11,186 bases of DNA from the NCBI GenBank assembly GCA_003157715.1, contig PMKK01000116.1, positions 1 to 11,186 of the forward strand. The letters run 5' to 3'. The notes under the pieces are model-generated. The model made no database searches. It saw only the letters and a program-made list of their open reading frames with translations, and had not been told where the DNA came from. This document shows, piece after piece, positions 814 to 11,186 of this stretch. A program made the translations under genes and the position numbers. Origin of the DNA: Actinomycetota bacterium (lineage in GTDB: Bacteria > Actinomycetota > Thermoleophilia > UBA2241). Each line of letters opens with the position of its first letter. Position 1 is the stretch's first letter.

Positions 814-2106
814 TTACAGGACGACGATCTCCTCGGGAGCCCGCGTCAGGCGCTCGACGCCGTCGGCGGTGACCGCCCAGGTGTTCTCTATGCCGATCGC
901 CCCAAGACCCGCGAACACGAACTTGGGCTCGAGGGCGAACACGTTGCCCACCTCGAGCGGCCGGTCGTTGCGCGAGAGCACCGGCAGCTCGTCGAGCTCG
1001 AGTCCGACGCCGTGCCCCACGAAGCGCGCCCGCGACGGGCCCCAGCCCATGAAATGGGCTTCGAGCCCGTCGCCCGCGGCGACCTCGAGAGCAGCTTCGT
1101 AGACATCCCGGCAGGCCACGCCGGGGCGAGCGCGGGCGCAGGCCGCCGCCTGCGCCCGGCGCGCGCACGCGTAGGCATCGGTGAGCCGCTCGGGCAGCTC
1201 ACCGAGCGCGAAGATCCGGGTGAAGTCGGCCGTGTAGCCGTCGAGCACGGGCACGAAGTCGAACACGACGGGCTCGCCGCGGCCGATGGGCTTGAAGCTC
1301 ACGCCCTGCGCCACCGCCGCGCTCAGGCCGGTGCCGGCCAGGGGCGTGTCCAAAAAGGAGGGCACGGCGCCGCTCGCCCCCGTCAGGAGCTGGCCGTAGA
1401 ACATCTCGGCGTTGAAGGCCCGCATGCGGATCACGCCCTGATGGCCCAGGGCTCGTGCCTCGGCCTCGACGCGGCCGGCGAAGGCGGCTTCGGTGAGACC
1501 CTCGCGCAGCAGACCGGGGATGCGCCCGAACACCTCGTCGGCGAGCGCCGCGGCGGCGGCGATGCGCTCGATCTCCCACGCCGACTTGACCGCCCGCTGG
1601 GCGACGAGCGCCGCGCCGATGTCGACGAAGCGCGCGCCCGCAAGCTGGCTCTCGTAGCGCCGAAACTGGCCGACCGGCAGCACGTCGAGCTCGAGCCCCA
1701 CGACGCCGGGCGTCCCGCCACAGCAGTCGGCGACCAGCTCGCCGAGGCGCCGCAGACTCGGCAGCTCGGCGACCGTCAGCGGCGACTCCTCGCGCGCGCG
1801 AGCGACAGTCTTGCGGGTGAGCAGCACGGGCGCGGCGCCGGCGGGCACCACCAGCCGCGACTCCTGGACCGTCCCCGCCAGGTAGTAGAGGTCGGCGTTC
1901 TGCGAGACGATGGCGGCATCGATGCCCTCGGCGCGCAGGGTCTCCTGAAAGCTCGTCAGGCGACGCTCGACCTCGGCGCGCGGCACGGGCACGGAGCGCG
2001 GCTCCACGAACGACGGTCCCCTGAACAGAGGCTCCGCGGACGGCGGCTCCGCGGACGGCGGCTCCGCGGATAGCGGCTCCGCGGACGGCGGCTCGATGGT
2101 GGTCAC
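814..2106 (-). CDS. M24 family metallopeptidase (Xaa-Pro aminopeptidase/dipeptidase type)
   Basis: A 430-residue pita-bread-fold peptidase. Residues about 45-165 form the creatinase/prolidase N-terminal domain and about 175-425 the M24 catalytic domain. All five expected metal ligands are present: Asp283, Asp294 (in DGYTAD), His365 (in GHGVGLE), Glu393 (in ALEP) and Glu407 (in GIEN). The family removes or cleaves Xaa-Pro peptides in the cytoplasm, but some members act on creatine-like or dimethylsulfoniopropionate-like substrates, so the exact substrate is not proven. The start is GTG (2104-2106) with GGAG about 8 nt upstream. Residues 6-27 are an unusual Pro-Ser-Ala-Glu repeat made by four 15-nt units, and real family homology begins near residue 45, so translation could start further in. 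The gene lies between the rhomboid and MBL genes. Confidence 0.9.
   Translation of the reverse strand: MTTIEPPSAEPLSAEPPSAEPPSAEPLFRGPSFVEPRSVPVPRAEVERRLTSFQETLRAEGIDAAIVSQNADLYYLAGTVQESRLVVPAGAAPVLLTRKTVARAREESPLTVAELPSLRRLGELVADCCGGTPGVVGLELDVLPVGQFRRYESQLAGARFVDIGAALVAQRAVKSAWEIERIAAAAALADEVFGRIPGLLREGLTEAAFAGRVEAEARALGHQGVIRMRAFNAEMFYGQLLTGASGAVPSFLDTPLAGTGLSAAVAQGVSFKPIGRGEPVVFDFVPVLDGYTADFTRIFALGELPERLTDAYACARRAQAAACARARPGVACRDVYEAALEVAAGDGLEAHFMGWGPSRARFVGHGVGLELDELPVLSRNDRPLEVGNVFALEPKFVFAGLGAIGIENTWAVTADGVERLTRAPEEIVVL
2030..2089 (-). repeat. Four tandem 15-nt units at the 5' end of the M24 gene
   Basis: On the plus strand the unit ggctccgcggacggc occurs at 2030-2044, 2045-2059, 2060-2074 (one copy ending in tagc instead of cggc) and 2075-2089, followed by the start of a fifth. 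On the coding strand each unit encodes five residues of a Ser-Ala-Glu-Pro-Pro/Leu type. The length is a multiple of three, so copy number can change without breaking the frame. The repeat sits outside the conserved peptidase fold. Confidence 0.9.
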
Positions 2107-2151: not shown

Positions 2152-3117
2152 CAGCCAGGGGATGAGAGTGGCGAGCGTGAAGGTCTGCACGCGCCAGAAG
2201 GTGAGCGCGACCAGGACGGCGATGACCGCGACGGTGACCACGATGTCCGTGCGTGTGAAGCGCCCGCCGGGGTTCTTGCGACCGAACATGTTGTAGAGGC
2301 ACATCAGGACGAAGCCGGTGACGAAGCCGCCGACGTGCCCCTGCCAGGACAGGCCGGATTGCGTGAACCCCAGGACGACGTTCAGCATGAGCCAGAACAT
2401 GAGCTGGCCGAACATGGCGCGCGCCATGTAGTCGTGGTGGCGATTGAGATACGCGTAGGCGATCAGCGCCCCGAAGACACCGAAGATCGCCCCCGAGGCG
2501 CCCACCGTGACGCCGAGCGGCGCCGCGAGCAGCACTATGAGCACCGAGCCGGCCAGGCCCGTGACCAGGTAGAGCACCAGGAACTTGACGTGGCCCAGTA
2601 TGGCTTCGGTGTACTCGCCCAGAAACCAGAGGGCCACCATGTTGAAAAGAATGTGAAGAAAGCTCTCGTGCAGGAACATGACGGTGAACATGCGCCAGTA
2701 CTCGTGGTTCAGGGCGACATAGGCCGGCACGAGGCCGCCCAGGCGCACCTGCTCGAGGATGCTGTTCAGGGCGCCGGTCGCCACCTCGACGAGAAAGACC
2801 ACGACGTTGATCGCGATCAGCACCTTGGTGACCGAAAGGCCGCGGCCCTGCCCCATCACGCCGCTGCTCTGCCAGCGACCGCGAGTCTGCTGGCGAGTGA
2901 CGACCCGCGGCCGTCCGGCGCCGTGCCGCTGCGCGGCCATGCAGTCGGGGCAGCGAAAGCCGACCGCCGCCGGCACCATGCACTCGTGGCAGATCGGCCG
3001 GCCGCAGTTCGAGCACCGCACGCCGGTCTCGCGACCAGGGTGACGGTAGCAGTGCTCGACGTCGAGATCGTCGGGCAGGCGCGGTTCGAAGTCCTCAAAT
3101 GGCGGGGTCGTGCTCAT
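2149..3117 (-). CDS. Rhomboid family intramembrane serine protease with N-terminal zinc-binding domain
   Basis: A 322-residue membrane protein. Residues 23-59 carry a Cys/His-rich segment (C23, H26, C35, C38, C43, H44, C46, C56, C59) resembling a B-box or zinc ribbon. Residues about 97-310 form the rhomboid core with six to seven hydrophobic segments. The catalytic dyad is Ser208 in GASGA and His261 in QGHVGG. The family WR motif is at 142-143 and the His/Asn pair of HILFNM at 155-159. The enzyme should cleave transmembrane substrates within the lipid bilayer, with the zinc domain probably in the cytoplasm. Substrates are unknown. The ATG at 3115-3117 overlaps the thioesterase stop as ATGA and has no clear ribosome binding site, so it is probably made by translational coupling. 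The frame stays open upstream, but that stretch is an arginine-rich shadow of the thioesterase gene. Confidence 0.93.
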   Translation of the reverse strand: MSTTPPFEDFEPRLPDDLDVEHCYRHPGRETGVRCSNCGRPICHECMVPAAVGFRCPDCMAAQRHGAGRPRVVTRQQTRGRWQSSGVMGQGRGLSVTKVLIAINVVVFLVEVATGALNSILEQVRLGGLVPAYVALNHEYWRMFTVMFLHESFLHILFNMVALWFLGEYTEAILGHVKFLVLYLVTGLAGSVLIVLLAAPLGVTVGASGAIFGVFGALIAYAYLNRHHDYMARAMFGQLMFWLMLNVVLGFTQSGLSWQGHVGGFVTGFVLMCLYNMFGRKNPGGRFTRTDIVVTVAVIAVLVALTFWRVQTFTLATLIPWL

Positions 3118-3659
3118 GATGGTGGCCGCCACTCTTGTGCCCGCGCCACGAGCTCGGCAATCCAGCCCTCGATGCGCACCGGCCTCATGGTCTCGCGCGA
3201 GACGACCGCGTGGCGGGTGCTGCCGCCGGCGATCAGCTCGCCGGGCACGTCGGCGGCGAGCGGCTCGCGGGCGACGGCGGCGAGCGGCTCGCGGGCGACG
3301 GCGGCGTCGCCGCCATTTCCCCTGTCGCCGGCACTCACGTCCCCGGCAACGCGCCGCACCTCGTAGCCGAAGCCGAACGAGGCACGCCCGACGTGGTCGG
3401 TCCACATGGCGACCTCGAGCAGGTCGTCGAGGTGAGCCGGGCTGTGGTAGGTGCAGTTCGCGCTGACCGCCGGCAAGATGACGCCGCGGCGCTCGACCTC
3501 GGTGATCGGCATGCCCACGGCGCGCAGAGCTTCGACGCGCGCGACCTCGAAGTAGACGAGGTAGTTCGAGTAGTAGACCACGCCGGCGGCGTCGGTCTCC
3601 TGATAGCGGACCCGGATGGGGGTGCGAAACGGCCCGGTGGCCTGCGGCGGCGCGTGCAT
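3114..3659 (-). CDS. Hot-dog fold acyl-CoA thioesterase (4HBT/YbgC-FadM type)
   Basis: A 181-residue thioesterase of the 4-hydroxybenzoyl-CoA type, expected to hydrolyse an acyl-CoA to free acid and CoA in the cytoplasm. The signature is RYQETDAAGVVYYSNYLVYF at residues 18-37, with the usual catalytic Asp at 23. Residues 37-105 and 141-170 continue the fold, ending in the strand GGSTRHAVV. Family members are usually about 130-150 residues. The excess here is an insert of about 35 residues (about 106-140), rich in Ala, Gly and Arg and containing a perfectly repeated AVAREPLA-type octapeptide. ATG at 3657-3659 is chosen because homology begins just after it; the frame extends 24 codons further upstream with a Arg/Asp-rich sequence unlike the family. 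There is no ribosome binding site, but a TAGAAT -10 box lies 9 nt upstream of the ATG, suggesting leaderless translation. It is the first gene of the minus-strand run. The acyl substrate is unknown. Confidence 0.88.
   Translation of the reverse strand: MHAPPQATGPFRTPIRVRYQETDAAGVVYYSNYLVYFEVARVEALRAVGMPITEVERRGVILPAVSANCTYHSPAHLDDLLEVAMWTDHVGRASFGFGYEVRRVAGDVSAGDRGNGGDAAVAREPLAAVAREPLAADVPGELIAGGSTRHAVVSRETMRPVRIEGWIAELVARAQEWRPPS
3258..3305 (-). repeat. Two perfect tandem 24-nt units inside the thioesterase gene
   Basis: The 24-nt unit beginning gagcggctcgcgggcgacgg is present twice without mismatch, at 3258-3281 and 3282-3305. It encodes a repeated eight-residue segment in the loop inserted into the hot-dog fold. 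The perfect identity suggests a recent duplication. Confidence 0.9.
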
Positions 3660-3667
3660 GGTGGCGG

Positions 3668-3673
3668 ATTCTA
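3668..3673 (-). promoter_or_regulatory. Candidate -10 element (TAGAAT) for a leaderless thioesterase transcript
   Basis: On the minus strand TAGAAT matches TATAAT at five of six positions and lies 8 nt before the thioesterase ATG (3659). The expected transcription start would fall at or a base or two before the ATG. No good -35 is visible at 16-18 nt; the nearest, GCGACA at 3694-3699, gives a 20-nt spacer. The absence of a Shine-Dalgarno sequence before this ATG fits a leaderless message. Confidence 0.45.
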
Positions 3674-3823
3674 GCACAGCGTCCGCTCCGGGCTGTCGCC
3701 GGTCAGCGCGCGACCGGCGGTCGCCGGCCACGCCGTCGCGGCGCGCTCGTGACCGCGCGACCGCGACCGCACGCTCGCGACGGCGCGGTCGCGAGTCGCG
3801 CGTTGCGCGGCGCCCAAAACGAG

Positions 3824-3912: not shown

Positions 3913-5187
3913 CTAGAAGACGACCTTGGCGACCTCGGTGAAGACGCCGAAGGCATGCTCCAGGTCGGAGTCGGTGAGCACGAGCGGCGGCAGGAAGCGT
4001 ACGCAGTTGCCGAAGCTGCCGGCGCCCATGAGGATGGTGTTGCGCTTGGCGGCCTCGGCGACGAACGCCTTGGCCGGACCGGCGTCGGGCTCGCGGGTGC
4101 CCGGCTTGACGACCTCGATGGCGGCCATGAGGCCCTTGCCGCGCACGTCGCCGATGGCGGGGTACGTCTTCTGCAGGTCCTTGAAGAACGCCAGCAGCTT
4201 GTCGCCCTGCCTGGCGGCGTTGCCCAGCAGGTCCTCGTCTTTCATGACCTGGATGGTGGCGTTACCCGCGGCGCAGGCCACGATGTTGCCGCCGAACGTG
4301 CCGCCCATCGAACCCGGGGTCACCTTGTCCCAGATATCCTTGCGGCTGACGATCGCGGCCAGCGGCAGACCGCTGGCGATGCCCTTGGCGACCGTGACGA
4401 TGTCGGCGGTGACGCCGTAGTGCTCGTGGCAGAACCACTTGCCGGTGCGGCCCATGCCCGCCTGGATCTCGTCGATCACGAGGTAGGCGCCGATCTCGTC
4501 GGCGATCTTGCGCAGCTCGAGCATGAACTCGGAGGTCGGCACGATAAAGCCGCCCTCGCCCTGGATGGGCTCGACCACGATGCAGGCCACGTCTTCGCCG
4601 TAGATCTCGGCGCGCAGGATGCGGCGCAGGTCTTCGATGGCGTAGTCGGTCGGGTCGAGGCCGGCCGGCGTGTGATACGGGTCGCAGTAGCGGGCGTGGA
4701 AGACGCACGGCACGAGGGGCTGCATGTGGCCGCGGTAGTGCACGACCGAATCGGTCAGCGCCATGGCCAGGTGGGTGCGGCCGTGGAAGGCGTTCTGGAA
4801 GGCGATCACGCCGGGGCGACGCAGGTTGCCCTTGGCGAGCTTGACGGCGTTCTCGACGGCCTCGGCGCCCGAGTTGGCAAACAGCACCTGGTCGAGGTTG
4901 CCCGGCACGATCTCGCACAGCGTGTCGGCCAGGTCGAGCATGGGCTGATGCAGGTACATGTTCATCTGCGCGTGGATCATCTTGCCGAGCTGGTCCTGGG
5001 CGGCTTTGACCACCTTGGGATGACAGTGGCCGGTGTTGGCCACCGCGATGCCCATACAGAAGTCGAGCCACTTGCTGCCGTCGGTGCCGTACACCCAGGC
5101 GCCTTCGGCGTGATCTACGGTGATGGGCGTTGCGCGCCCGACGAAGCCGGGAATGCGTGTCTTTTTGTCTTGAGCGACCACCGTCAT
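3913..5187 (-). CDS. gabT-like: Class-III PLP aminotransferase, 4-aminobutyrate aminotransferase type
   Basis: A 424-residue pyridoxal-phosphate enzyme of the acetylornithine/4-aminobutyrate aminotransferase family, full length. Visible motifs are NSGAEA (105-110, phosphate binding), FHGRTHLAM (134-142), VIDEIQAGMGRTGKW (237-251, with Asp239 for the pyridine nitrogen), the Schiff-base lysine Lys268 in VAKGIASGLPL, and GGTFGGN (295-301). It should move an amino group from an omega-amino acid such as 4-aminobutyrate to 2-oxoglutarate. Related specificities (ornithine, acetylornithine, beta-alanine, branched omega-amino acids) cannot be excluded. ATG at 5185-5187 is chosen because GGAGG precedes it by about 6 nt; the frame stays open 40 codons further upstream, but that stretch lacks homology and contains the likely promoter and a hairpin. 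It is monocistronic as far as can be seen, with a terminator hairpin behind it, and diverges from the rex operon. Confidence 0.88.
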   Translation of the reverse strand: MTVVAQDKKTRIPGFVGRATPITVDHAEGAWVYGTDGSKWLDFCMGIAVANTGHCHPKVVKAAQDQLGKMIHAQMNMYLHQPMLDLADTLCEIVPGNLDQVLFANSGAEAVENAVKLAKGNLRRPGVIAFQNAFHGRTHLAMALTDSVVHYRGHMQPLVPCVFHARYCDPYHTPAGLDPTDYAIEDLRRILRAEIYGEDVACIVVEPIQGEGGFIVPTSEFMLELRKIADEIGAYLVIDEIQAGMGRTGKWFCHEHYGVTADIVTVAKGIASGLPLAAIVSRKDIWDKVTPGSMGGTFGGNIVACAAGNATIQVMKDEDLLGNAARQGDKLLAFFKDLQKTYPAIGDVRGKGLMAAIEVVKPGTREPDAGPAKAFVAEAAKRNTILMGAGSFGNCVRFLPPLVLTDSDLEHAFGVFTEVAKVVF

Positions 5188-5208
5188 GGAAACCTCCGCG
5201 CCTGGACC

Positions 5209-5236
5209 GCTTTTCGGTTTGGCGAAACCGAAGAGC
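5209..5236 (-). promoter_or_regulatory. Inverted repeat in the aminotransferase leader
   Basis: GCTTTTCGGTTT (5209-5220) and AAACCGAAGAGC (5225-5236) pair over 12 positions with one imperfect pair (T:G on one strand, C:A on the other) and a 4-nt loop. It lies 22 nt upstream of the aminotransferase ATG, next to its ribosome binding site. It could be an operator for a repressor or an RNA hairpin affecting translation. The sequence alone does not decide between them. Confidence 0.5.
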
Positions 5237-5265
5237 CCTATAACCTTGATGAAACGGACGGTCAC
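5237..5265 (-). promoter_or_regulatory. Possible promoter of the aminotransferase gene
   Basis: On the minus strand GTGACC (5260-5265, four of six to TTGACA) and TATAGG (5237-5242, four of six to TATAAT) are 17 nt apart. A start near 5230 would place the 5209-5236 inverted repeat at the very beginning of the message. Weak match, listed because it is the only reasonable leftward candidate in the gap. Confidence 0.35.
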
Positions 5266-5419
5266 GGGTCGCGGATCTCGCGCCGATACCCCTGACTCCA
5301 GCGACATCTTAGCGTGTCGCCCTGGTCCGCCACCGCCGGCGGTTCGCGCACGGTGTGAAGAGAGAAACGGCCGCTTTGGACGCCTTGTCCAAGCGCCGCC
5401 CGCCCGAGCGCCCTCCAGC

Positions 5420-5448
5420 TTGACACTCCGCTCTGCTCAAGCTACGCT
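5420..5448 (+). promoter_or_regulatory. Promoter of the rex-hyd operon
   Basis: A perfect -35 TTGACA at 5420-5425 is followed, after exactly 17 nt, by TACGCT at 5443-5448 (three of six to TATAAT). The predicted start is near 5455. The poor -10 is overlapped by the Rex operator, which would block RNA polymerase when occupied. The leader to the rex ATG would be about 60 nt. Confidence 0.6.
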
Positions 5449-5464
5449 GTGAATTGCTTCACAA
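5447..5464 (+). promoter_or_regulatory. Rex operator (NAD/NADH-responsive)
   Basis: CTGTGAATTGCTTCACAA matches the Rex-box consensus TTGTGAA-N4-TTCACAA at 13 of 14 specified positions; only the first base differs. It overlaps the end of the -10 element and the predicted transcription start, and lies 50 nt before a gene encoding Rex itself. Known Rex proteins leave such sites when NADH is high. Autorepression of the whole operon, relieved under reducing conditions, is the natural reading. Confidence 0.85.
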
Positions 5465-5476
5465 CGTTACGTAACG
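5465..5476. promoter_or_regulatory. Perfect 12-nt palindrome next to the Rex operator
   Basis: CGTTACGTAACG is identical to its own reverse complement and begins directly after the last base of the Rex operator, about +10 to +21 from the predicted start. It does not resemble the Rex box. It may be the site of a second regulator. No assignment is possible. Confidence 0.5.
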
Positions 5477-5504
5477 AAACGACTGGCATTCGGCACCGAC
5501 CGCC

Positions 5505-5510
5505 GGGAGG
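5505..5510 (+). promoter_or_regulatory. Ribosome binding site of rex
   Basis: GGGAGG ends 3 nt before the ATG at 5514. The spacing is short but the match is strong, and it supports this start over the internal ATG at 5541, which would remove part of the first helix of the Rex DNA-binding domain. Confidence 0.6.
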
Positions 5511-5513
5511 ATC

Positions 5514-6584
5514 ATGGTCTCGCGCAAGACGATCGCTCGCATGAGCCTCTACCGGCGGCTCCTCATATCGCTGCGCGACGACGGCACGAGCCACGTCTTC
5601 TCTCACCAGCTCGCCAAGCTCGCCGGCCTCACGGCGGCCCAGGTGCGCCGCGACTTCATGTCGATCGGCTACTCGGGCAGCCCTACGCGCGGCTACGAGG
5701 TCGGCAAGTGCATCGACAGCATCGGCGGCTTTCTCGACGGCCCTCGCCGCCAGGACGTCGCTCTGGTCGGCGCCGGCAAGCTCGGCCGCTCGATCATCTC
5801 CCACTTCAGCGGCCGCCGCCCCAAGCTTGCCATCGTCGCCGCCTTCGACGACGACCCGGCCAAGGCCGAGGGCCGCATCGACGGCTGCCGCTGCTTTCCG
5901 GTCGACATCATGGAGTCGACCGTGCGCGACCTCGGCATCCAGATCGCCATCGTGGCCACGCCGCCGGCCGCCGCCCAGAAGGCCACCGACGCCCTCGTGC
6001 GCGCCGGCGTGCGCAGCATCGTGAGCTTCGCCGCCACGCCGTTGCAGGCGCCCGAGGGTGTCTCGATCATCGACATGGACATCACCGCCGCCCTCGAGAC
6101 GGCCGCCTACATCGCCCGCGAGACGCCGGCGACCACGGCCGCCGAGGCGGAAGCCGACGTCGACAAGTCCGCCGCCCCGCTGCTGCGCCAGCTCGACACG
6201 CTGCTCGCCGGCAACGAGGTCAAGCTCGACGAGCTGGCCCGCCGCATCGGCGCCCAGATCGTCTCGAGCGACTCGTGTCCGCAGCGCACCGTCGAAAAGA
6301 TCTACGCCGGCGACCGGGTCAGCGACCTGTTGAACGAAGCCTCCGACCGCACCCTGCTGGTGACCAACCTCATGAGCCTGCAGATGATCCGCGTCGCCGA
6401 GCTCATGGACGTGCCGGCGATCTGCTTCGTGAACGGCGTCTGTCCCGAGCCCGACATCGTCGCCAAGGCCGACAGCACCGGCACCACGCTGCTGGTCTCG
6501 CCGATCGGTGTCTTCGAGACCTGCGGCCTCATCTACCAGTCCCTCGCCGCCGCTCCGGCGGCCGCCCCCGCCGCGCGCGCTTGA
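5514..6584 (+). CDS. rex: Rex redox-sensing repressor fused to a C-terminal DRTGG domain
   Basis: A 356-residue two-part protein. Residues 1-80 form the Rex winged-helix DNA-binding domain (LAKLAGLTAAQVRRDFMSIG, then YEVGKCIDSIGGFL). Residues 81-203 form the NAD(H)-binding Rossmann domain with GAGKLG at 86-91 and FDDDP at 111-115. Rex proteins normally end near residue 210-220. Here an Ala/Glu/Asp-rich linker (about 204-220) leads into a DRTGG domain (about 222-345; VKLDELARRI, YAGDRVSDLL, LLVTNLMSLQMIRVAELMDV, FETCGLIY), then an Ala/Pro tail. Rex represses fermentative and respiratory genes and is released from DNA by NADH. The DRTGG domain occurs in HPr kinase and other proteins, and its ligand is not generally known. 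First gene of the operon, with a Rex operator 50 nt upstream, so probably autoregulated. The Rex half is certain, the role of the fused domain unknown. Confidence 0.93.
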   Translation: MVSRKTIARMSLYRRLLISLRDDGTSHVFSHQLAKLAGLTAAQVRRDFMSIGYSGSPTRGYEVGKCIDSIGGFLDGPRRQDVALVGAGKLGRSIISHFSGRRPKLAIVAAFDDDPAKAEGRIDGCRCFPVDIMESTVRDLGIQIAIVATPPAAAQKATDALVRAGVRSIVSFAATPLQAPEGVSIIDMDITAALETAAYIARETPATTAAEAEADVDKSAAPLLRQLDTLLAGNEVKLDELARRIGAQIVSSDSCPQRTVEKIYAGDRVSDLLNEASDRTLLVTNLMSLQMIRVAELMDVPAICFVNGVCPEPDIVAKADSTGTTLLVSPIGVFETCGLIYQSLAAAPAAAPAARA

Positions 6585-6592
6585 CCGATCTC

Positions 6593-8146
6593 ATGGAGCA
6601 TGTGAAGTACGACATCGTCGGTGGCGACTACAGCGAGGCGGGCGCCGCGTCGCGCGCCATCAAGGCGCACCTCAAGGCCATCGGGGCTCGCTCCGACGCC
6701 ATCCGGCGCGCCATGATCGCCGCCTACGAAGCCGAGATGAACGTGGTCATCCACGCCCGCCGCGGACGCCTCGAGGCGGCCATCGACGACCACCACATCG
6801 ACGTCGACGTGATCGACGAAGGCCCCGGCATCCCCGACATCGAGCGCGCCCTCACGCCGGGTTTCTCGACGGCCTCCCCCGAAGCCCGCGCGCTGGGCTT
6901 CGGCGCCGGCCTGGGCCTGCCCAACATCCGCCGCAACTCAGACAGCTTTTCCCTGGAGAGCGAGGTCGACAAGGGCACCACCGTGCGCTTCAGCGTGCTG
7001 CTGCACCCCGAACCGGTCGCCGGCGGCGCCCCGCTGTCGCTGGCCGTGAACGCCGGGCTCTGCCGCGACTGCCGACGCTGCCTCGCGGCCTGTCCCACCG
7101 GCGCCCTCCGCGTGCGCGCGGGCGTGCCGCAAGTGATCGACCACCTCTGCATCGACTGCACCTGCTGCATCGCGGCCTGCGAGGCCGGCGCCCTGGGCCT
7201 CGCCGAGACGGCCCCCGACGCCGAGCGCCTCGGCGCCGTGCCGCTGGCGGTGCCGCCGGCCTTCCTGGCCGGGTTCGGCGAGCGCGTCACCGCCGACTGC
7301 GTGCGCGACGCGCTCGCCGACTCCGGCTTTGCCGAAGTCTGCTCGGTCGACGGCTGCGAGACCGCCCTGCGCGCCGAGGTCGCCGCCGACGCGGCGGCAA
7401 GCGACCGGCCGCGGCCTGTACTTTCGCCCGCCTGCCCGTCGGTCGTGGCCCTGATCGAACTGCGGTTCCCGTCGCTGCTTGCCCATCTGGCGCCGTTCGC
7501 CTCGCCCTGGGAGTCTCTCGCCACGACGACCGGCAGCGACACCGTCTATGTCGTGTCGTGCCCGGGTCAGCGCAGCGCGCTGGCCGCTCGCGGCATCGAC
7601 GCCGCCCGCCGCGCGATCGAGCCCGCCCTGCTGCGCGACCTCGTGCTGGCGCATCTCGCCGGCCACCGCAGCGAAGCGCCGGCACCGATCGTCACGACCG
7701 CCGCCGCCGACGGGCCGCTACGCGTGACCGGCATCGATCATGTCATCGCCGTGCTCGAACAGATCGAAGACGGGCTGCTGACCGCCCCGGCGGCGATCGA
7801 GCTCTACGTCTGCGACGGCGGCTGCTTCGGTTCGCCGCTGCTGGCCGACGACCCGTTCCTCGCCGCGGCCCGGACGCCCGCCGCCGCGACGCTCGGCGAC
7901 ACCTCACCCCCGCCTGCCGTGGCAGCCCCGCGCCAGGCGTTCGCGGCACGCCCCGGCATTCGGCTCGACGCCGACATGGCCAAAGCCATCGAGAAGCTCG
8001 GCCGCCTCGACGCGCTACGGCGCGAGCTGCCCGGCAAGGACTGCGGTGCGTGCGGCGCACCGACCTGCGCGGCACTTGCCGAGGACGTCGTCCTCGGCCG
8101 CGCCGAGGTCGTCTTGTGCCCGTACCGTTCCACCGACGGAGGCTGA
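6593..8146 (+). CDS. RsbW-like ATPase fused to 2x[4Fe-4S] ferredoxin, HydS-like domain and C-terminal Fe-S domain
   Basis: A 517-residue cytoplasmic protein. Residues 1-137 are a GHKL/anti-sigma-factor-type ATPase (YEAEMNVVIH with Asn50; DEGPGIPD 75-82; GFGAGLGLPN 102-111). Residues 155-200 hold two [4Fe-4S] motifs (C157, C160, C163, C167; C186, C189, C192, C196). Residues about 215-430 are a shortened [FeFe]-hydrogenase large-subunit-like domain. It keeps single cysteines aligned with the four cysteine ligands of the H-cluster cubane (C281 in SPACP, C323 in VSCPGQ, C407 and C411 in CDGGC). It has Ala280 where catalytic HydA has the proton-shuttle Cys, and no Lys after C323. Residues 484-509 are a C-x2-C-x4-C-x16-C Fe-S domain. 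It resembles sensory HydS more than a working hydrogenase. ATG 6593 lies 8 nt after rex; TTG at 6581, overlapping the rex stop, is a less likely start. Function inferred: electron or H2 sensing coupled to an ATP-dependent switch. Confidence 0.85.
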   Translation: MEHVKYDIVGGDYSEAGAASRAIKAHLKAIGARSDAIRRAMIAAYEAEMNVVIHARRGRLEAAIDDHHIDVDVIDEGPGIPDIERALTPGFSTASPEARALGFGAGLGLPNIRRNSDSFSLESEVDKGTTVRFSVLLHPEPVAGGAPLSLAVNAGLCRDCRRCLAACPTGALRVRAGVPQVIDHLCIDCTCCIAACEAGALGLAETAPDAERLGAVPLAVPPAFLAGFGERVTADCVRDALADSGFAEVCSVDGCETALRAEVAADAAASDRPRPVLSPACPSVVALIELRFPSLLAHLAPFASPWESLATTTGSDTVYVVSCPGQRSALAARGIDAARRAIEPALLRDLVLAHLAGHRSEAPAPIVTTAAADGPLRVTGIDHVIAVLEQIEDGLLTAPAAIELYVCDGGCFGSPLLADDPFLAAARTPAAATLGDTSPPPAVAAPRQAFAARPGIRLDADMAKAIEKLGRLDALRRELPGKDCGACGAPTCAALAEDVVLGRAEVVLCPYRSTDGG

Positions 8147-8152
8147 CAGAAG

Positions 8153-8509
8153 ATGAAGCTTGAGAGCATCGCTCGCGAACTCGACCTCACGGACCTGACG
8201 CCCGCCCTCGCCGGCGCGGCGGCGGCCGAGGTCACGGCAGGCTACGCCTCCGACCTGCTTTCGGACGTCCTTGCCAACGCCCCCGAGGGCGGCGTCCTCG
8301 TCACCCTGCAGGTACACCTGAACGTGGTCGCCGTGGCCAGCCACGCCGAGCTTTGCGCGGTCGTCTTTACCTCGGGCCGCGCGCCCGACCCCGAGATCGT
8401 CGCCAAGGCGATGGCCGAGGGCCTGCACCTCTACGGCACCGACGCCGACACGTTCGAGACCGTCGGCCGCCTGTTCGCCCTGGGCGTGAAGAGCGGCCGT
8501 GACGTCTGA
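8153..8509 (+). CDS. Stand-alone DRTGG-domain protein
   Basis: A 118-residue protein made only of a DRTGG domain. It starts MKLESIARELDL and continues AGYASDLLSDVLANAPEGGV, with DPEIVAKAMAEGLHLYGTDADTFETVGRL near the end. It is recognisably related to residues 235-345 of the Rex fusion (shared VKL/MKL start, YAG..SDLL, PDIVAKA and FET positions) but has lost several of the conserved polar residues, so the two are diverged paralogues. Proteins of this kind accompany HydABC-type hydrogenase operons in anaerobes. Their biochemical role is unknown, and nucleotide or small-molecule binding is the usual guess. ATG lies 6 nt after the previous gene, with GGAGG 12 nt and AGAAG directly upstream. Its end overlaps the PHP gene by 11 nt if that gene starts at GTG 8499. 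Confidence 0.8.
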   Translation: MKLESIARELDLTDLTPALAGAAAAEVTAGYASDLLSDVLANAPEGGVLVTLQVHLNVVAVASHAELCAVVFTSGRAPDPEIVAKAMAEGLHLYGTDADTFETVGRLFALGVKSGRDV

Positions 8510-9254
8510 CCCCTTCATGACCGTACGCGCCGACCTGCACGTTCACACGGCGCTGTCGCCGTGCGGCGACGACGAGATGTCGCCGCCGGCGATCGTCGAC
8601 GCCGCCCTGGCGGCGGGCCTCGGCCTGATCGCCGTGTGCGACCACAACGCCGCCGGCAACACCGGCGCCGTCGGCGAGGCTGCCGGCAGCCGCCTGAGCG
8701 TCATCTCCGGCATCGAGATCACCACGGCCGAGGAAGTCCACGTCGTCGGGCTCTTCCCCACCGTGACGGCCGCCGCCAACGCGGCCGACGAGGTGCGCGA
8801 GACGCTGCCGGTGGCCGACGACGACTACACGCGCTTCTTCGGCGAGCAGTACCTCATGAGCGCCGACGGCACGGTCTACGGCCGCGAGCCTCGGGCGCTG
8901 GCGCTGGCCACCTCGCTGGGACTGGACGAGACCGTCGAGCTGATCAGGCGCTATGGCGGCCTGGTCATCGCGGCGCACATCGACCGGCCGACCTTCGGCG
9001 TCATCGCGCAGCTCGGCTTCTTTCCGCGCGAGGCGGGTTTCGACGCCGTCGAGCTGTCGCGTCACGCGCCGGCCGGCTCGCCGGCGACCGACGGCTACGC
9101 CGCTTACGGGCTGCCGATCGTGCGCTCCTCGGACAGCCACTACCTCGAGGACGTGGGCTGCGTCGCCTCCGAGTTCGGGCTGGCGGCGCCGACGTTCCGC
9201 GAGCTCGTGCTCGCCCTCAAGCACCGCGAAGGCAGGGTCCTGGCCGATGCATGA
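8499..9254 (+). CDS. PHP-domain metal-dependent phosphoesterase
   Basis: A 251-residue PHP protein of the trinuclear-metal phosphoesterase family. The ligands are visible: His14-x-His16 (DLHVHT), Asp48-His49 (CDHN), Glu73 (GIEIT), His81 (EVHVVG), His160 (AAHIDRP) and Asp212-x-His214 (SDSHYLEDVG), so it should be catalytically competent. Family members hydrolyse nucleotide phosphates, 3'-5' nucleic-acid ends or histidinol phosphate; a stand-alone PHP of this size most resembles the TrpH/YciV group. The substrate here is unknown. The start is uncertain: GTG 8499 overlaps the DRTGG gene by 11 nt, while ATG 8517 would give a protein six residues shorter, and neither has a strong ribosome binding site, so coupling to the gene before is likely. 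The end overlaps the next gene by 8 nt. The context suggests it makes or destroys a phosphate-bearing signal. Confidence 0.87.
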   Translation: MTSDPFMTVRADLHVHTALSPCGDDEMSPPAIVDAALAAGLGLIAVCDHNAAGNTGAVGEAAGSRLSVISGIEITTAEEVHVVGLFPTVTAAANAADEVRETLPVADDDYTRFFGEQYLMSADGTVYGREPRALALATSLGLDETVELIRRYGGLVIAAHIDRPTFGVIAQLGFFPREAGFDAVELSRHAPAGSPATDGYAAYGLPIVRSSDSHYLEDVGCVASEFGLAAPTFRELVLALKHREGRVLADA

Positions 9255-9924
9255 CCTGTCACTGTATGTCCTGGAGATGATCGAGAACTCGCTGCGGGCC
9301 GGCGCCGGCAAGGTCGCCGTGCACGTCTGGATCGAAGCGCCGCGCGACGAGCTGTCGATCGTGGTCGAAGACGACGGTCCCGGCCTTGACGTGAGCGTCG
9401 AGCAGGCGACCGACCCCTTCTACACGACCAAGGCCGGCAAGCGGACCGGCCTCGGACTGCCGCTCTTTCGCGAGGCGGCAGAGGCGGCCGGCGGCCACCT
9501 CACGCTGCACCGTTCGCGCGATCTGGGCGGCGTCGCGATCGACGCCGTCATGGTGCTCTCGCACGTCGACCGCCCGCCGCTGGGCGACGTCGTGGAGACC
9601 GTGGCCGTGATGGCGGCCACCAACCCCCAGGCCGACCTGAGCCTCGAAGTCGGCGCCGGCGCCGACACCTGCCTGGCCACGGGCGCCGAGCTCGCCGCCG
9701 GCGCACCCGTCGCGCGCCGCTGCGCGGCGCTGCTGGCCGGCGCCGACTCGGCCCCGGCAAGAGTCGACGCCCGACCGGTCTCGACCACCCATCCGGCGCG
9801 AAACACCGACCCGACCCTGACCACCGATCCGGTGCGAGACACCGACCCGACCATGACCAGCGATCCGATCCCGACAGTGGACGGCACCTGTGATGACAAC
9901 AAGCTGCAAAGGAGCGTGGGATGA
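9247..9924 (+). CDS. GHKL-type ATP-binding protein (histidine-kinase-like ATPase) with repeat tail
   Basis: A 225-residue protein. Residues 1-108 form a GHKL ATPase fold: EMIENSLRAGA with Asn14 (N box), EDDGPGL at 41-47 (G1), DPFYTTKAGKRTGLGLP at 56-72 (ATP lid and G2). There is no phosphoacceptor histidine domain or sensor domain, so it is not a classical sensor kinase; it resembles the small ATPases of hydrogenase operons. Residues 109-165 form a second conserved part beginning PPLGDVVETVAVM. Residues about 168-219 are a low-complexity tail with TDP-rich repeats, made by a 36-nt tandem duplication, and are probably dispensable. ATG 9247 overlaps the PHP stop by 8 nt, and the TGA overlaps the next ATG as ATGA. 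Second ATPase of the operon. Role inferred: an ATP-dependent partner in signalling or in assembly of the hydrogenase. Confidence 0.83.
   Translation: MHDLSLYVLEMIENSLRAGAGKVAVHVWIEAPRDELSIVVEDDGPGLDVSVEQATDPFYTTKAGKRTGLGLPLFREAAEAAGGHLTLHRSRDLGGVAIDAVMVLSHVDRPPLGDVVETVAVMAATNPQADLSLEVGAGADTCLATGAELAAGAPVARRCAALLAGADSAPARVDARPVSTTHPARNTDPTLTTDPVRDTDPTMTSDPIPTVDGTCDDNKLQRSVG
9783..9870 (+). repeat. 36-nt tandem repeat (about 2.4 copies) in the tail of the ATPase gene
   Basis: Units at 9783-9818 and 9819-9854 differ at only a few bases, and a partial third begins at 9855 (gaccagcgatccg). Each unit encodes 12 residues of a T-T-x-P-x-R-x-TDPT pattern. The unit length is a multiple of three, so the frame is kept. 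Within each unit, gac/acc-rich sub-repeats are also visible. Confidence 0.85.
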
Positions 9925-10451
9925 CTGAAGTCCTCCAACAGTGCGTTTGCGAGGAGGCGACAGAGGAAGAGCTGCTCGCCCGCCTCGACGAGGTGATCGC
10001 GAGTTACAAGGACAAGCCCGGGGCACTGATCCCCGTCCTGCAGCTCGCCCAGGGCATCTTCGGCTACCTGCCGGTGGTCGCCCTCAAGCACGTCGCCCTG
10101 AAGATGGGCAAGCCCTACAGCGAAGTGGCCGGCGTGGTCGGCTTCTACTCGTTCTTCTCGCGCGTGCCGCGCGGCAAGCACGTCATCCGGGTCTGTCTGG
10201 GGACGGCCTGCTACGTGCGCGGCGGCGTGGCCGTGCTCGACGCCTTGAAGAAGGACCTCGGCGTCGACGTCGGCGAGACCACCGACGACCGCCAGTTCTC
10301 GCTCGAGGTCGGACGCTGCTTCGGCGCCTGCGGCCTCGCTCCCGTGATCATGATCGACGACGACGTGCATCATCGCGTCAAGCCCAAGCGGATCGGCGCC
10401 ATTCTGGGCGAGTACGCCGCCGAGCCCGTCACAGCAGAGAGGAGTGCCTGA
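9921..10451 (+). CDS. hydC: NuoE/HydC-type [2Fe-2S] subunit of NAD-linked hydrogenase or dehydrogenase
   Basis: A 176-residue subunit with the NuoE architecture: an N-terminal helical part (about 12-78, ending YSEVAGVVGFYSFF) and a thioredoxin-like [2Fe-2S] domain with C92-x4-C97 (CLGTAC) and C133-x3-C137 (CFGAC). It is about the usual length of this family. It should carry electrons next to the flavin subunit that oxidises or reduces NAD(H). In HydABC-type bifurcating hydrogenases this is HydC. The same fold also serves complex I, formate dehydrogenase and NADP-reducing hydrogenase, and the catalytic subunit lies beyond the window, so the symbol is inferred from context. AGGAG about 7 nt upstream supports the ATG, which overlaps the previous stop as ATGA. 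Confidence 0.9.
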   Translation: MTEVLQQCVCEEATEEELLARLDEVIASYKDKPGALIPVLQLAQGIFGYLPVVALKHVALKMGKPYSEVAGVVGFYSFFSRVPRGKHVIRVCLGTACYVRGGVAVLDALKKDLGVDVGETTDDRQFSLEVGRCFGACGLAPVIMIDDDVHHRVKPKRIGAILGEYAAEPVTAERSA

Positions 10452-10455
10452 CGCC

Positions 10456-10827
10456 ATGGTAGAGAAGATCAAGAGTGCCGCCGACCTCAAGGCGATGGCC
10501 GGCAGGGCGAAGGCCTCGGTCGAGCTGCGCGAAGGGACCAAGGACGTCCAGGTCACGGTCCACATGGGCACCTGCGGCATCGCCGCCGGAGCGCGCGGCG
10601 TAGCCGCCGCCTTCATGCGCGAGCTGGCCGCCGCCGGCGTCGACAACGTCACGCTGCGGCAGTCGGGCTGCGCCGGGCTCTGCGAGCAGGAGCCGATGGT
10701 CACCGTGCGCGACGCGAGCGACACGCCCTACCGGTACGGGCTGCTCGACGACGCCAAGGTCAAGACGATCGTCACGCAGCACCTCGCCGGCGGCAAGCCG
10801 GTCGACGCGCTGCTGATCGGATCGTAG
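10456..10827 (+). CDS. Small thioredoxin-like (2Fe-2S) ferredoxin-domain protein
   Basis: A 123-residue protein. After a helical start (LKAMAGRAKASVELREG) comes a thioredoxin-like ferredoxin domain with VHMGTCGIAAGARGV (Cys40) and SGCAGLCEQEPMV (Cys72, Cys76). This is the small partner often found between NuoE- and NuoF-type genes in anaerobes. Only three cysteines are present in the whole protein; the position four to five residues before Cys40, a Cys in NuoE-type domains, is Val35/His36 here. A normal four-cysteine [2Fe-2S] site is therefore not complete within one chain. ATG 10456 is chosen, with AGGAG at 10440-10444 about 11 nt upstream; an in-frame GTG at 10444 lies inside that ribosome binding site. 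Starts 4 nt after hydC. Role: probable electron-transfer or assembly partner of the flavin subunit. Confidence 0.82.
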   Translation: MVEKIKSAADLKAMAGRAKASVELREGTKDVQVTVHMGTCGIAAGARGVAAAFMRELAAAGVDNVTLRQSGCAGLCEQEPMVTVRDASDTPYRYGLLDDAKVKTIVTQHLAGGKPVDALLIGS

Positions 10828-10858
10828 AAGCTCTCGAGGACTACTAAAGGAAGCGGAT

Positions 10859-11186
10859 ATGGAGCAGTTCAGAAGCCACGTCCTCGTCTGCACGGGTGGT
10901 GGGTGCATCGCATCCGGCGCTCTGGCGGTCAGCGCCGCCTTCGATGAGGAGTTAAAGAACAAGGGTCTGGCCGACGAGGTCCAGGTCGTCGAGACGGGCT
11001 GCCTGGGGCCGTGCGCCGTGGGCCCGGTCGCGCTCGTCTACCCGGACGGCGTCTTCTACCAGAACATCAAGGTGCCCGACGTCGCTGAGATCGTCGAGGA
11101 GCACCTGCTCAAGGGCCGCATCGTGACGCGCCTCGTGAGCCATGCGCCCGGCACCGACAAGACGACCGCCGAGATGCACGACGTCG
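10859..11186 (+). CDS. hydB: NuoF/HydB-type flavin subunit, N-terminal part (cut by window end)
   Basis: The first 109 residues of a gene that continues past the window. They form the N-terminal thioredoxin-like [2Fe-2S] domain with C11-x4-C16 (CTGGGC) and C48-x3-C52 (CLGPC), followed by YPDGVFYQNIKVPDVAEIVE and EEHLLKGRIVTRLV, which are typical of the segment leading into the NAD/FMN domain of bacterial HydB/NuoF proteins of anaerobes. The extra N-terminal [2Fe-2S] domain is characteristic of the hydrogenase and formate-dehydrogenase types rather than plain complex-I NuoF. The ATG at 10859 has AAAGGAAG about 6 nt upstream. It starts 31 nt after the previous gene, the widest gap in the operon. 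Expected role: FMN- and NAD-binding subunit of the bifurcating complex. The catalytic HydA should follow. Confidence 0.87.
   Translation, partial: MEQFRSHVLVCTGGGCIASGALAVSAAFDEELKNKGLADEVQVVETGCLGPCAVGPVALVYPDGVFYQNIKVPDVAEIVEEHLLKGRIVTRLVSHAPGTDKTTAEMHDV

What the first reader, a model, noticed from the sequence alone, without database searches (positions are those of the whole stretch)
5420..11186. Candidate redox-signalling module built into a bifurcating hydrogenase operon
Eight consecutive genes, overlapping or 4-31 nt apart, combine a Rex-DRTGG regulator, an ATPase-FeS-HydS-like fusion, a second DRTGG protein, a PHP phosphoesterase, a second GHKL ATPase and then NuoE, (2Fe-2S) and NuoF-type subunits. 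Related sets without these fusions occur upstream of hydABC in Clostridia and Thermotoga, but I know of no worked-out mechanism for the DRTGG/PHP/ATPase part. Two ATP-binding switch proteins, a phosphoesterase and two ligand-binding-like domains look like a complete sense-signal-reset circuit: the HydS-like part senses, the ATPases switch, PHP removes a phosphate signal, and Rex-DRTGG reads the result. This circuit is inference.
Basis: inference. Interest (0 to 1): 0.85.

Follow-up and report, generated by a model that had tools for sequence, protein, structure and literature searches.

The report
Rex-led redox-sensing hydrogenase operon
A hydrogen-enzyme operon from an uncultured actinobacterium-like organism starts with its own redox-controlled off-switch (a Rex repressor fused to an extra DRTGG domain, with a Rex-type site in its own promoter), followed by a conserved, little-understood set of sensor proteins that sits beside the same enzyme in several bacterial phyla.

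Summary
The eight genes are real and lead a HydABC-type [FeFe]-hydrogenase operon: in 9 of 13 relatives fetched, one of them 93-94% identical, it runs on through HydB, HydA, a receiver and a group-C sensory hydrogenase-kinase. The DRTGG-ATPase-'HydS-like'-DRTGG-PHP set is not unique; it recurs in several phyla (DRTGG1 79/79 loci, DRTGG2 69/72, PHP 60/64; enzyme genes 25/28 with full flanks), and an ATPase-bearing HydS is in print for Hydrogenedentota. New here: (1) a Rex-DRTGG family with a Rex operator in its own promoter (18/19 loci; shuffles 0.12); the strict palindrome occurs once in the closest relative's genome. (2) Neighbouring parts are fused in different lineages (Rex-DRTGG1, DRTGG1-ATPase, ATPase-HydS, GHKL-NuoE), hinting at a physical chain ending on a repressor. 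(3) All eight ATPase-fused hydrogenase-like domains examined keep four cluster cysteines but lack the diiron-site lysine, so they are probably Fe-S redox sensors rather than H2 sensors. Verdict: new variant of a known kind that gives group D HydS a testable output route.

The parts
5420..5448 (+). Promoter-like hexamers TTGACA (5420-5425) and TACGCT (5443-5448), 17 nt apart; the second hexamer meets the operator
   Evidence: Sequence. TTGAC stands 19-22 nt before the operator in 18 of 18 loci with an operator in the 150 nt examined, 0.51 expected in mononucleotide shuffles. Against: the strict consensus scan found no sigma-70 site in 5300-11186; TACGCT matches TATAAT at only 3 of 6.
5447..5464 (+). 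Rex operator CTGTGAATTGCTTCACAA (core 5448-5463 TGTGAA-N4-TTCACA)
   Evidence: Exact core, 0.04 expected at up to 2 mismatches; site with at most 3 mismatches in 18 of 19 loci of the clade; the only TGTGA-N6-TCACA found in the 3.2-Mb genome G046 lies at the matching place.
5466..5475 (+). Second palindrome GTTACGTAAC directly after the operator; possible tandem site
   Evidence: GTT-N(0-10)-GT[AC]AC in the 24 nt after the operator in 15 of 18 loci, 0.09 expected in mononucleotide shuffles.
5514..6584 (+). Rex repressor (about residues 1-205) fused to a DRTGG domain (about 233-347), 356 aa
6593..8146 (+). Fusion: SpoIIAB/RsbW-like ATPase (1-140), two 4Fe-4S sites (157-196), degenerate [FeFe]-hydrogenase H-domain, C-terminal Cx2Cx4Cx16C Fe-S domain (484-509); 517 aa; possible earlier TTG start at 6581
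   Evidence: Pfam; fold matches to SpoIIAB 1tid TMt 0.84 and to [FeFe] hydrogenases; residue counts.
8153..8509 (+). Second DRTGG protein (DRTGG2), 118 aa
   Evidence: PF07085 E 6.5e-5, under the curated cut-off; follows HydS in 69 of 72 loci with room.
8499..9254 (+). PHP-domain metallo-phosphoesterase, 251 aa
   Evidence: PF02811/PF13263; H14, D48, H49, E73, H81, H160, D212, H214 in 68/68, H16 in 67/68.
9247..9924 (+). GHKL ATPase without phospho-acceptor domain, with a repeat-bearing C-tail, 225 aa
   Evidence: PF02518; one ORF with NuoE in L117 and L121.
9921..10451 (+). NuoE/HydC-type subunit, 176 aa
   Evidence: PF01257 161.7 bits.
10444..10827 (+). 2Fe-2S thioredoxin-like ferredoxin, 127 aa
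   Evidence: Weak PF01257 and NF041612 matches; homologues stand next to NuoF in the loci.
10859..11186 (+). Start of the NuoF/HydB-type subunit (N-terminal 109 aa); in the relative L111 about 1,020 aa, NuoF fused to a GltD-like flavoprotein, followed by HydA
   Evidence: PF01257 33.2 bits; L111 6526-11363.

Best explanation
This is the head of a self-regulated, roughly 11-gene HydABC-type [FeFe]-hydrogenase operon. The first gene encodes a dedicated Rex repressor. SHOWN by sequence: it has a Rex DNA-binding and NAD-type fold, and a Rex-type operator lies in its own promoter region. INFERRED from Rex biology: when NADH/NAD+ is low, Rex-DRTGG sits on the operator, over the -10/start region, and shuts the operon; when NADH builds up it lets go, and the hydrogenase is made to burn off NADH and reduced ferredoxin as H2. 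The extra DRTGG domain is the second input. Its neighbour is a SpoIIAB-like ATPase fused to a 4Fe-4S protein that descends from a group D-like sensory hydrogenase but has probably lost the diiron centre. INFERRED: the Fe-S part reads the ferredoxin/redox state, the ATP state of the ATPase changes its grip on DRTGG1, and this shifts Rex's hold on DNA, so that the operon answers both to NADH and to ferredoxin. DRTGG2 and PHP are accessory (PHP probably hydrolyses a small nucleotide or phosphate ligand); the GHKL protein mostly belongs to the enzyme half, docked on HydC.
For: Rex-DRTGG. Exact operator core in the window; site within 150 bp upstream in 18 of 19 loci at 3 mismatches or fewer (dinucleotide shuffles: mean 0.12, max 2); of four genomes searched, the strict TGTGA-N6-TCACA occurs once in G046 and once in G091, both in this promoter, and three times in G040, one of them here. 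Rex-type sites are also enriched before the hydrogenase operon in loci without the fusion (16 of 58 at 2 mismatches or fewer, shuffles 1.2). Physical chain: Rex-DRTGG1, DRTGG1-ATPase (L014), ATPase-HydS and GHKL-NuoE occur as single ORFs in different lineages. Conserved ATPase and PHP sites. K358 equivalent lost in 8 of 8 ATPase-fused proteins against K in 71 and R in 2 of 73 split ones; Q in 26 of 26 rows of the closer panel A1. Precedent: a rex gene with a predicted Rex site leads the hydABC cluster of Caldithrix abyssi (PMC5317091, passages).
Against: No experiment; operator strength and NADH response of this Rex are inferred. The fourth genome searched, G042, has no strict palindrome, though it holds a 3-mismatch site before Rex (L092). 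L099, a 57%-identical Rex of the same clade with such a site, shows no DRTGG part in the stretch seen. The link DRTGG1 to ATPase rests on adjacency (79/79) and one fusion ORF; a gene fusion can reflect co-expression rather than signalling. Where Rex is not fused, sites before DRTGG1 are only modestly enriched (8 of 76, shuffles 1.15). The loci of the class are related, so counts are not independent. In TamHydS the C-terminal cluster did not respond to H2 (PMC13104023, abstract and passages). GHKL stands without NuoE in L005 (contig end near), L032 and L072, the last directly after DRTGG2, so its place in the enzyme half is not absolute.
Confidence: 0.5

Rival explanations
1. The DRTGG-ATPase-HydS-DRTGG-PHP set acts after translation on the HydABC enzyme (assembly, repair or an on/off switch of the complex). 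Rex-DRTGG is just the operon's local repressor, and its DRTGG domain only adds dimer contacts or a ligand site.
For: GHKL is fused to NuoE in two genomes and accompanied by it in 61 of 64 loci. In 18 of 59 loci NuoE runs on the opposite strand to the sensor set, so the two units need not share a promoter. Rex-type sites are enriched before NuoE more than before DRTGG1 where Rex is not fused.
Against: GHKL belongs mostly to the enzyme half, so its fusion says little about the sensor set. Rex is fused exactly to the first member of the sensor set. The sensor core can stand without hydABC in the flanks seen (L009).
Confidence: 0.3
2. One reading: the ATPases make a phosphate signal, PHP removes it, Rex-DRTGG reads it.
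For: PHP metal ligands conserved in 68/68 (H16 67/68) and the SpoIIAB-type Glu/Asn of the N-box in 81/81, so both could be enzymes.
Against: No phospho-acceptor domain (STAS, HPr or HisKA) was found in the eight window genes; the HisKA and receiver pair further down belongs to the separate HydS-kinase. The nearest solved PHP relatives are 7ug9, named a 5'-3' exoribonuclease, and 2yb1 (2yb1's nucleotide substrate is recalled). PHP is missing from 4 of 64 loci with room.
Confidence: 0.1
3. The HydS-like domain of the window is a working H2 sensor with an H-cluster, like TamHydS.
For: All four H-cluster-type cysteines and the C-terminal Cx2Cx4Cx16C are kept, 81/81. A lost proton-transfer cysteine alone is also seen in TamHydS (PMC8163306, passages).
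Against: The residue at the CpI-358 Lys position is Q in the window and Q or E in all 8 ATPase-fused proteins (Q in 26/26 of panel A1), the L2 Pro is Ser and the L3 second Gly is Ser. For ATPase-bearing relatives in Hydrogenedentota others also could hardly find the H-cluster motifs (PMC11406978, passages).
Confidence: 0.1

Closest known systems
Rex repressor and Rex-led hydABC cluster (Caldithrix abyssi, PMC5317091; passages seen)
   Same: rex gene heads a bifurcating-type hydABC cluster with a predicted Rex site just upstream of rex
   Different: There Rex is described as a regulator gene with no DRTGG domain mentioned in the passages; here Rex is fused to DRTGG and followed by the ATPase/HydS/PHP set. 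My text search for 'Rex' with 'DRTGG' found one paper, on pneumococcal capsule by its listing.
Group D (M2e) putative sensory [FeFe]-hydrogenase, TamHydS (PMC8163306, PMC13104023; passages seen)
   Same: [quoted passage not shown] published markers R30, R32, D378, E392 and D393 kept in the window
   Different: Window protein is fused to the ATPase, lacks the K358, K58, K35 and D403 equivalents and probably the diiron site
HATPase-bearing 'group C1' [FeFe]-hydrogenases of Hydrogenedentota (PMC11406978; passages seen)
   Same: ATPase domain on a sensory-type [FeFe]-hydrogenase, 21 of 53 genes next to group A3 genes, H-cluster motifs hardly found; very likely the same protein family as L005, a Hydrogenedentota locus
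   Different: 'DRTGG' occurs 0 times in that paper's main text, and I saw no Rex fusion or operator in its passages
hfs-type (group C, PAS) sensory hydrogenase operon of Thermoanaerobacterium (PMC5707799; passages seen)
   Same: A hydrogenase-like subunit with a regulatory role: hfsB deletion raised ethanol yield and adhE expression
   Different: PAS-bearing group C protein, no ATPase fusion mentioned in the passages
SpoIIAB/RsbW anti-sigma kinases
   Same: Fold (1tid, TMt 0.84), N-box Glu/Asn, G1 and G2 motifs
   Different: 49.7 bits against the anti-sigma F cut-off of 135; no sigma factor or STAS domain among the eight window genes
HydABC, group A3 bifurcating-type [FeFe]-hydrogenase
   Same: NuoE, 2Fe-2S, NuoF-GltD and HydA in order in relatives
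   Different: Preceded by the sensor set, with an extra GHKL ATPase; bifurcation itself not tested

Membership tests
Rex repressor | N-terminal Put_DNA-bind_N winged helix and CoA_binding/Rossmann domain | tested here: met
   PF06971 53.6 bits (cut-off 27), PF02629 50.7 (22.3), NF003995 170.1 (126)
Rex repressor | Binds TTGTGAA-N4-TTCACAA-type operators | tested here: inconclusive
   Operator present in its promoter region; binding not testable here
Rex repressor | Release of DNA by NADH | not testable with these tools
   Needs purified protein
Rex repressor | About 210 aa, two domains only | tested here: not met
   356 aa with a C-terminal DRTGG domain
DRTGG domain (PF07085) | Match over the curated cut-off | tested here: inconclusive
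   [not shown]
Group D (M2e) sensory [FeFe]-hydrogenase | C-terminal Cx2Cx4Cx16C, no PAS domain, no proton-transfer Cys | tested here: met
   Motif 81/81, no PAS in the Pfam scan of the window protein, Cys in 0/81 at the C299 position
Group D (M2e) sensory [FeFe]-hydrogenase | H-cluster site: four Cys plus L2 Lys | tested here: not met
   Four Cys 81/81, but Lys replaced by Gln in the window and Gln/Glu in all 8 fused proteins; Lys in 71 and Arg in 2 of 73 split ones
Group D (M2e) sensory [FeFe]-hydrogenase | Conserved charges R30, R32, K35, K58, D378, E392, D393, D403 (PMC13104023) | tested here: inconclusive
   Window keeps R30, R32, D378, E392, D393; lacks K35, K58, D403 (placed by motif spacing, TamHydS itself was not aligned)
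SpoIIAB/RsbW anti-sigma kinase | GHKL fold with N-box Glu and Asn, G1, G2 | tested here: met
   E46, N50, D75, G77, G79, G104, G106, G108 in 81/81; SpoIIAB top fold match
SpoIIAB/RsbW anti-sigma kinase | Cognate sigma factor and STAS anti-anti-sigma partner encoded nearby | tested here: inconclusive
   None among the eight window genes by Pfam; the window's other genes and most flanking genes of the loci were not annotated, and no own genome is held
Group A3 HydABC hydrogenase | NuoE, NuoF and HydA genes together | tested here: met
   NuoE and NuoF start in the window; HydA only in relatives, e.g. L111 with Fe_hyd_lg_C 320.4 bits
PHP phosphoesterase | Conserved metal-binding His/Asp/Glu set | tested here: met
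   Eight residues 68/68, H16 67/68

The most novel reading that the evidence does not exclude
A retired hydrogenase serves as an Fe-S redox sensor whose signal passes through a SpoIIAB-like ATPase to the DRTGG domain of a Rex repressor, giving one transcription factor two redox inputs (NADH and ferredoxin). This would be the first output route known for group D HydS-type proteins and a protein-to-repressor use of the anti-sigma-type ATPase fold that involves no sigma factor.
Probability: 0.35. Interest if true: 0.78.

Novelty: new variant of a known kind. Interest (0 to 1): 0.6.

Why it matters
How group D 'sensory' hydrogenases pass on their signal is an open question in print: they lack the PAS domain that suggested a route in group C (PMC8163306, PMC13104023, passages). 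The gene order and the fusions here name the partners one by one (ATPase, DRTGG1, Rex, operator), so the question can be put to a few binding assays. Hydrogenases of this type set how fermenters split electrons between H2 and other products, and the same set occurs in many Clostridia.

Tried and rejected
Considered and rejected: (1) that the eight-gene set is unique or a chance neighbourhood; DRTGG1-ATPase-HydS recurs wherever the contig allows a look and the rest in most loci. (2) That an ATPase-bearing HydS is new; it is in print for Hydrogenedentota. (3) That the window's HydS-like part is an ordinary H2 sensor. (4) That the Rex operator is a chance palindrome. (5) A 'RexN-ATPase-HydS' single ORF in L082 and L112 (both from G040): ignored, since Rex and HydB are also split there and a frame break in the assembly is likely. 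(6) Weak NuoFn-HydS and HydS-GHKL joint hits: taken as other Fe-S proteins and as the group-C HydS-kinase.

Led nowhere: viral contigs (12 pattern matches, no relative); Rfam (no hit); strict promoter/terminator scan (0 found); paper searches for DRTGG with hydrogenase (1 paper, not opened), for PHP domain with bifurcating and hydrogenase (1 paper, a T. saccharolyticum Rex study), for hydABC-operon terms (0 with two terms) and for PHP/serine kinase terms (0). Passages of PMC4374699, PMC7325909 and PMC3990059 did not mention the set. Both structure models are of middling confidence (pLDDT 74.5 and 75.8); Foldseek was run on both and VIA-align on the Rex model only; DRTGG2, PHP and GHKL were not modelled. 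L117 departs after HydB (HydA-like hit on the other strand) and was not followed up.

One search used 19 loci with at least 100 nt upstream: L081-L096, the window, L099 (no DRTGG part detected) and L100 (runs off its contig); L097 and L098 have no upstream DNA; the one miss, L084, has a 3-mismatch site further up. One search used regions of at least 200 nt (76 and 58 of the 77 loci L004-L080). PHP counts rest on ORFs of 200-300 aa (L002, L006, L023 and L057 left out). One search listed the best matches only, so 18 of 299 genomes with Rex-DRTGG is a lower bound; in L082 the ORF is frame-broken and L097 and L098 start inside Rex.
Full report
WHAT IS THERE. The window ends 109 codons into the NuoF-type gene. 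No genome is held for the window. Its relatives look actinobacterial: the three best loci of named genomes are Actinobacteria MAGs and two homologues bear the name Thermoleophilia.

THE WHOLE OPERON. In L111 the order is Rex-DRTGG, ATPase-HydS, DRTGG2, PHP, GHKL, NuoE, ferredoxin, HydB (1,020 aa, NuoF plus a GltD-like flavoprotein), HydA (589 aa, Fe_hyd_lg_C 320 bits), a 132-aa receiver protein and a 691-aa group-C-type sensory hydrogenase with HisKA and HATPase domains. Of 13 regions fetched, 9 show this run through to the HydS-kinase (L112 with frame breaks, L118 with the last gene cut), 3 are cut off earlier (L120, L121, L122) and 1 (L117) departs after HydB.

HOW WIDESPREAD. DRTGG1 directly precedes the ATPase in 79 of 79 loci with at least 500 bp on the left; DRTGG2 follows in 69 of 72 with 1.5 kb on the right and PHP in 60 of 64 with 2.5 kb; of the 28 loci with at least 9 kb on both sides, 25 hold GHKL, NuoE, HydB and HydA (misses L009, L028, L035). 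In 18 of 59 loci NuoE runs on the opposite strand, and GHKL is accompanied by NuoE in 61 of 64 loci (exceptions L005, L032, L072), so the set falls into a sensor unit (DRTGG1-ATPase-HydS-DRTGG2-PHP) and, mostly, an enzyme unit (NuoE-GHKL-ferredoxin-HydB-HydA). L009, L012 and L021 keep only DRTGG1-ATPase-HydS.

THE REX OPERATOR. The exact core TGTGAA-N4-TTCACA stands at 5448-5463, 50 nt before the Rex start. In the class of G003, 299 genomes were searched; 18 loci (L081-L098, one per genome) hold Rex joined to DRTGG in one ORF (L082 frame-broken, L097 and L098 cut at the contig start). Of 19 loci of this clade with upstream DNA (L081-L096, the window, and L099 and L100 in which no DRTGG part could be seen), 18 have a site with at most 3 mismatches within 150 bp, against 0.12 in dinucleotide shuffles. 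TTGAC stands 19-22 nt before the site in 18 of 18 (0.51 expected from mononucleotide shuffles), and a second palindromic element follows in 15 of 18 (0.09 expected). In four genomes searched, the strict TGTGA-N6-TCACA occurs once in G046, once in G091, three times in G040 (one in this promoter, one before its unfused rex) and not in G042; the reversed control pattern occurs in none. The three genomes G001-G003 also carry one or two Rex genes each that match the Rex part alone, so the fusion is an extra, local Rex. In loci without Rex fusion, Rex-type sites with at most 2 mismatches lie before NuoE in 16 of 58 (shuffles 1.2, random windows 1.0) and before DRTGG1 in 8 of 76 (1.15 and 0.95).

FUSIONS POINT TO A CHAIN. 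In single ORFs we see Rex-DRTGG1 (class of G003), DRTGG1-ATPase (L014, 1 of 80 loci), ATPase-HydS (class of G003 and L001-L007) and GHKL-NuoE (L117, L121). L014 also has an unfused Rex directly upstream and a perfect operator TTGTTAAAAAATTAACAA before it.

THE HYDROGENASE-LIKE PART. In 81 sequences the four H-cluster-type cysteines and the C-terminal Cx2Cx4Cx16C are invariant; the proton-transfer position is Cys in none. The CpI-358 Lys position is K in 71 and R in 2 of the 73 split proteins, but Q (6) or E (2) in all 8 ATPase-fused ones; the second Gly of L3 is lost in the same 8 and the L2 Pro in 6 of 8; all 26 rows of the closer panel A1 have Q. That this Lys holds the diiron site is recalled knowledge. 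In the tree the 8 fused rows form one side of a branch with 100/100 support, with a warning about long branches. Published group D markers R30, R32, D378, E392 and D393 are present in the window; K35, K58 and D403 are not (markers from PMC13104023; placed by motif spacing, since TamHydS itself was not aligned). So the family is group D-like, but the window's branch probably holds a 4Fe-4S cluster without the diiron part. ATPase-bearing sensory hydrogenases in Hydrogenedentota were reported with H-cluster motifs hardly found (PMC11406978).

ENZYME RESIDUES. ATPase N-box, G1 and G2 residues are invariant in 81/81; PHP ligands in 68/68 (H16 67/68); GHKL N14, D42, G44, G46, G68 and G70 in 65/65, while the GHKL N-box acid is Glu in the window but Asp in 63 of 65. 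The ATPase half is most like SpoIIAB in fold (1tid, TMt 0.84). The PHP protein's nearest solved relatives by sequence are 7ug9 (named 5'-3' exoribonuclease) and 2yb1.

MECHANISM. Shown: a conserved set, a Rex-type operator at the operon's own promoter region, physical joining of neighbouring parts, conserved catalytic sites. Inferred: NADH-gated repression; redox gating of the ATPase by the Fe-S part; ATPase-to-DRTGG1 contact changing Rex binding; PHP acting on a small nucleotide-like ligand; GHKL acting on HydC.

WHAT IS ALREADY KNOWN. A rex gene with a predicted site at the head of hydABC (Caldithrix, PMC5317091); regulatory genes upstream of clostridial hydABC noted in general terms (PMC3492117, passages); the ATPase on or next to the sensory hydrogenase (PMC11406978, PMC8163306); a regulatory effect of a group-C-type hydrogenase subunit, hfsB, on ethanol yield and adhE (PMC5707799, passages); predicted Rex sites before hydrogenase and maturation genes in T. 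saccharolyticum (PMC5886521, passages). Not found in these passages or in the listings of my ten searches: the Rex-DRTGG fusion, its operator, or the chain as a whole. Most subscription papers are not in the library, so this is not proof of absence.

Noticed in passing
window 9783-9867: A 36-bp tandem repeat (2.4 copies, 89% match) encodes a Thr/Asp/Pro-rich tail of the GHKL protein; the tail differs in length from the close relative L111 (225 against 206 aa).
   Followed up: partly
window 3913-5307 (- strand) and 5308-5513: A divergent gene that looks by eye like a class III aminotransferase (no family search run) faces Rex across the intergenic region that holds the operator; a homologue stands upstream of Rex on the - strand in L001 and L002, so it might share Rex control.
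   Followed up: no
L111 11456-13929; L003 18292-20596: After HydA come a stand-alone receiver protein and a group-C-type sensory hydrogenase fused to a histidine kinase, which keeps the L2 Lys but has a C-x2-C L3 motif: a second, candidate H2-sensing branch in the same operon.
   Followed up: partly
L111 15436-18000: A second hydrogenase-type cluster follows within 2 kb: a receiver-domain ORF, an ORF with both NuoE- and NuoF-type domains, and a HydA-like start.
   Followed up: no
L111 9594-11363 and L003 16303-18243: HydA carries TSCSPGW in place of TSCCPGW at motif L1, with Ser where the second Cys would stand; recalled as known from HndD-type enzymes.
   Followed up: no
L117 10409-15625: Between HydB and the receiver gene lie about 5 kb with a HydA-like hit on the opposite strand, unlike the other relatives.
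   Followed up: no
L032 3806-4363; L072 12019-12621: GHKL ATPase stands by the sensor set with no NuoE found in the flank, so it is not tied to the enzyme genes everywhere.
   Followed up: no
window 2030-2094, 3227-3306: Short high-GC tandem repeats (15-bp and 24-bp units) inside the - strand ORFs 814-2106 and 3114-3731, which look by eye like a peptidase and a thioesterase.
   Followed up: no
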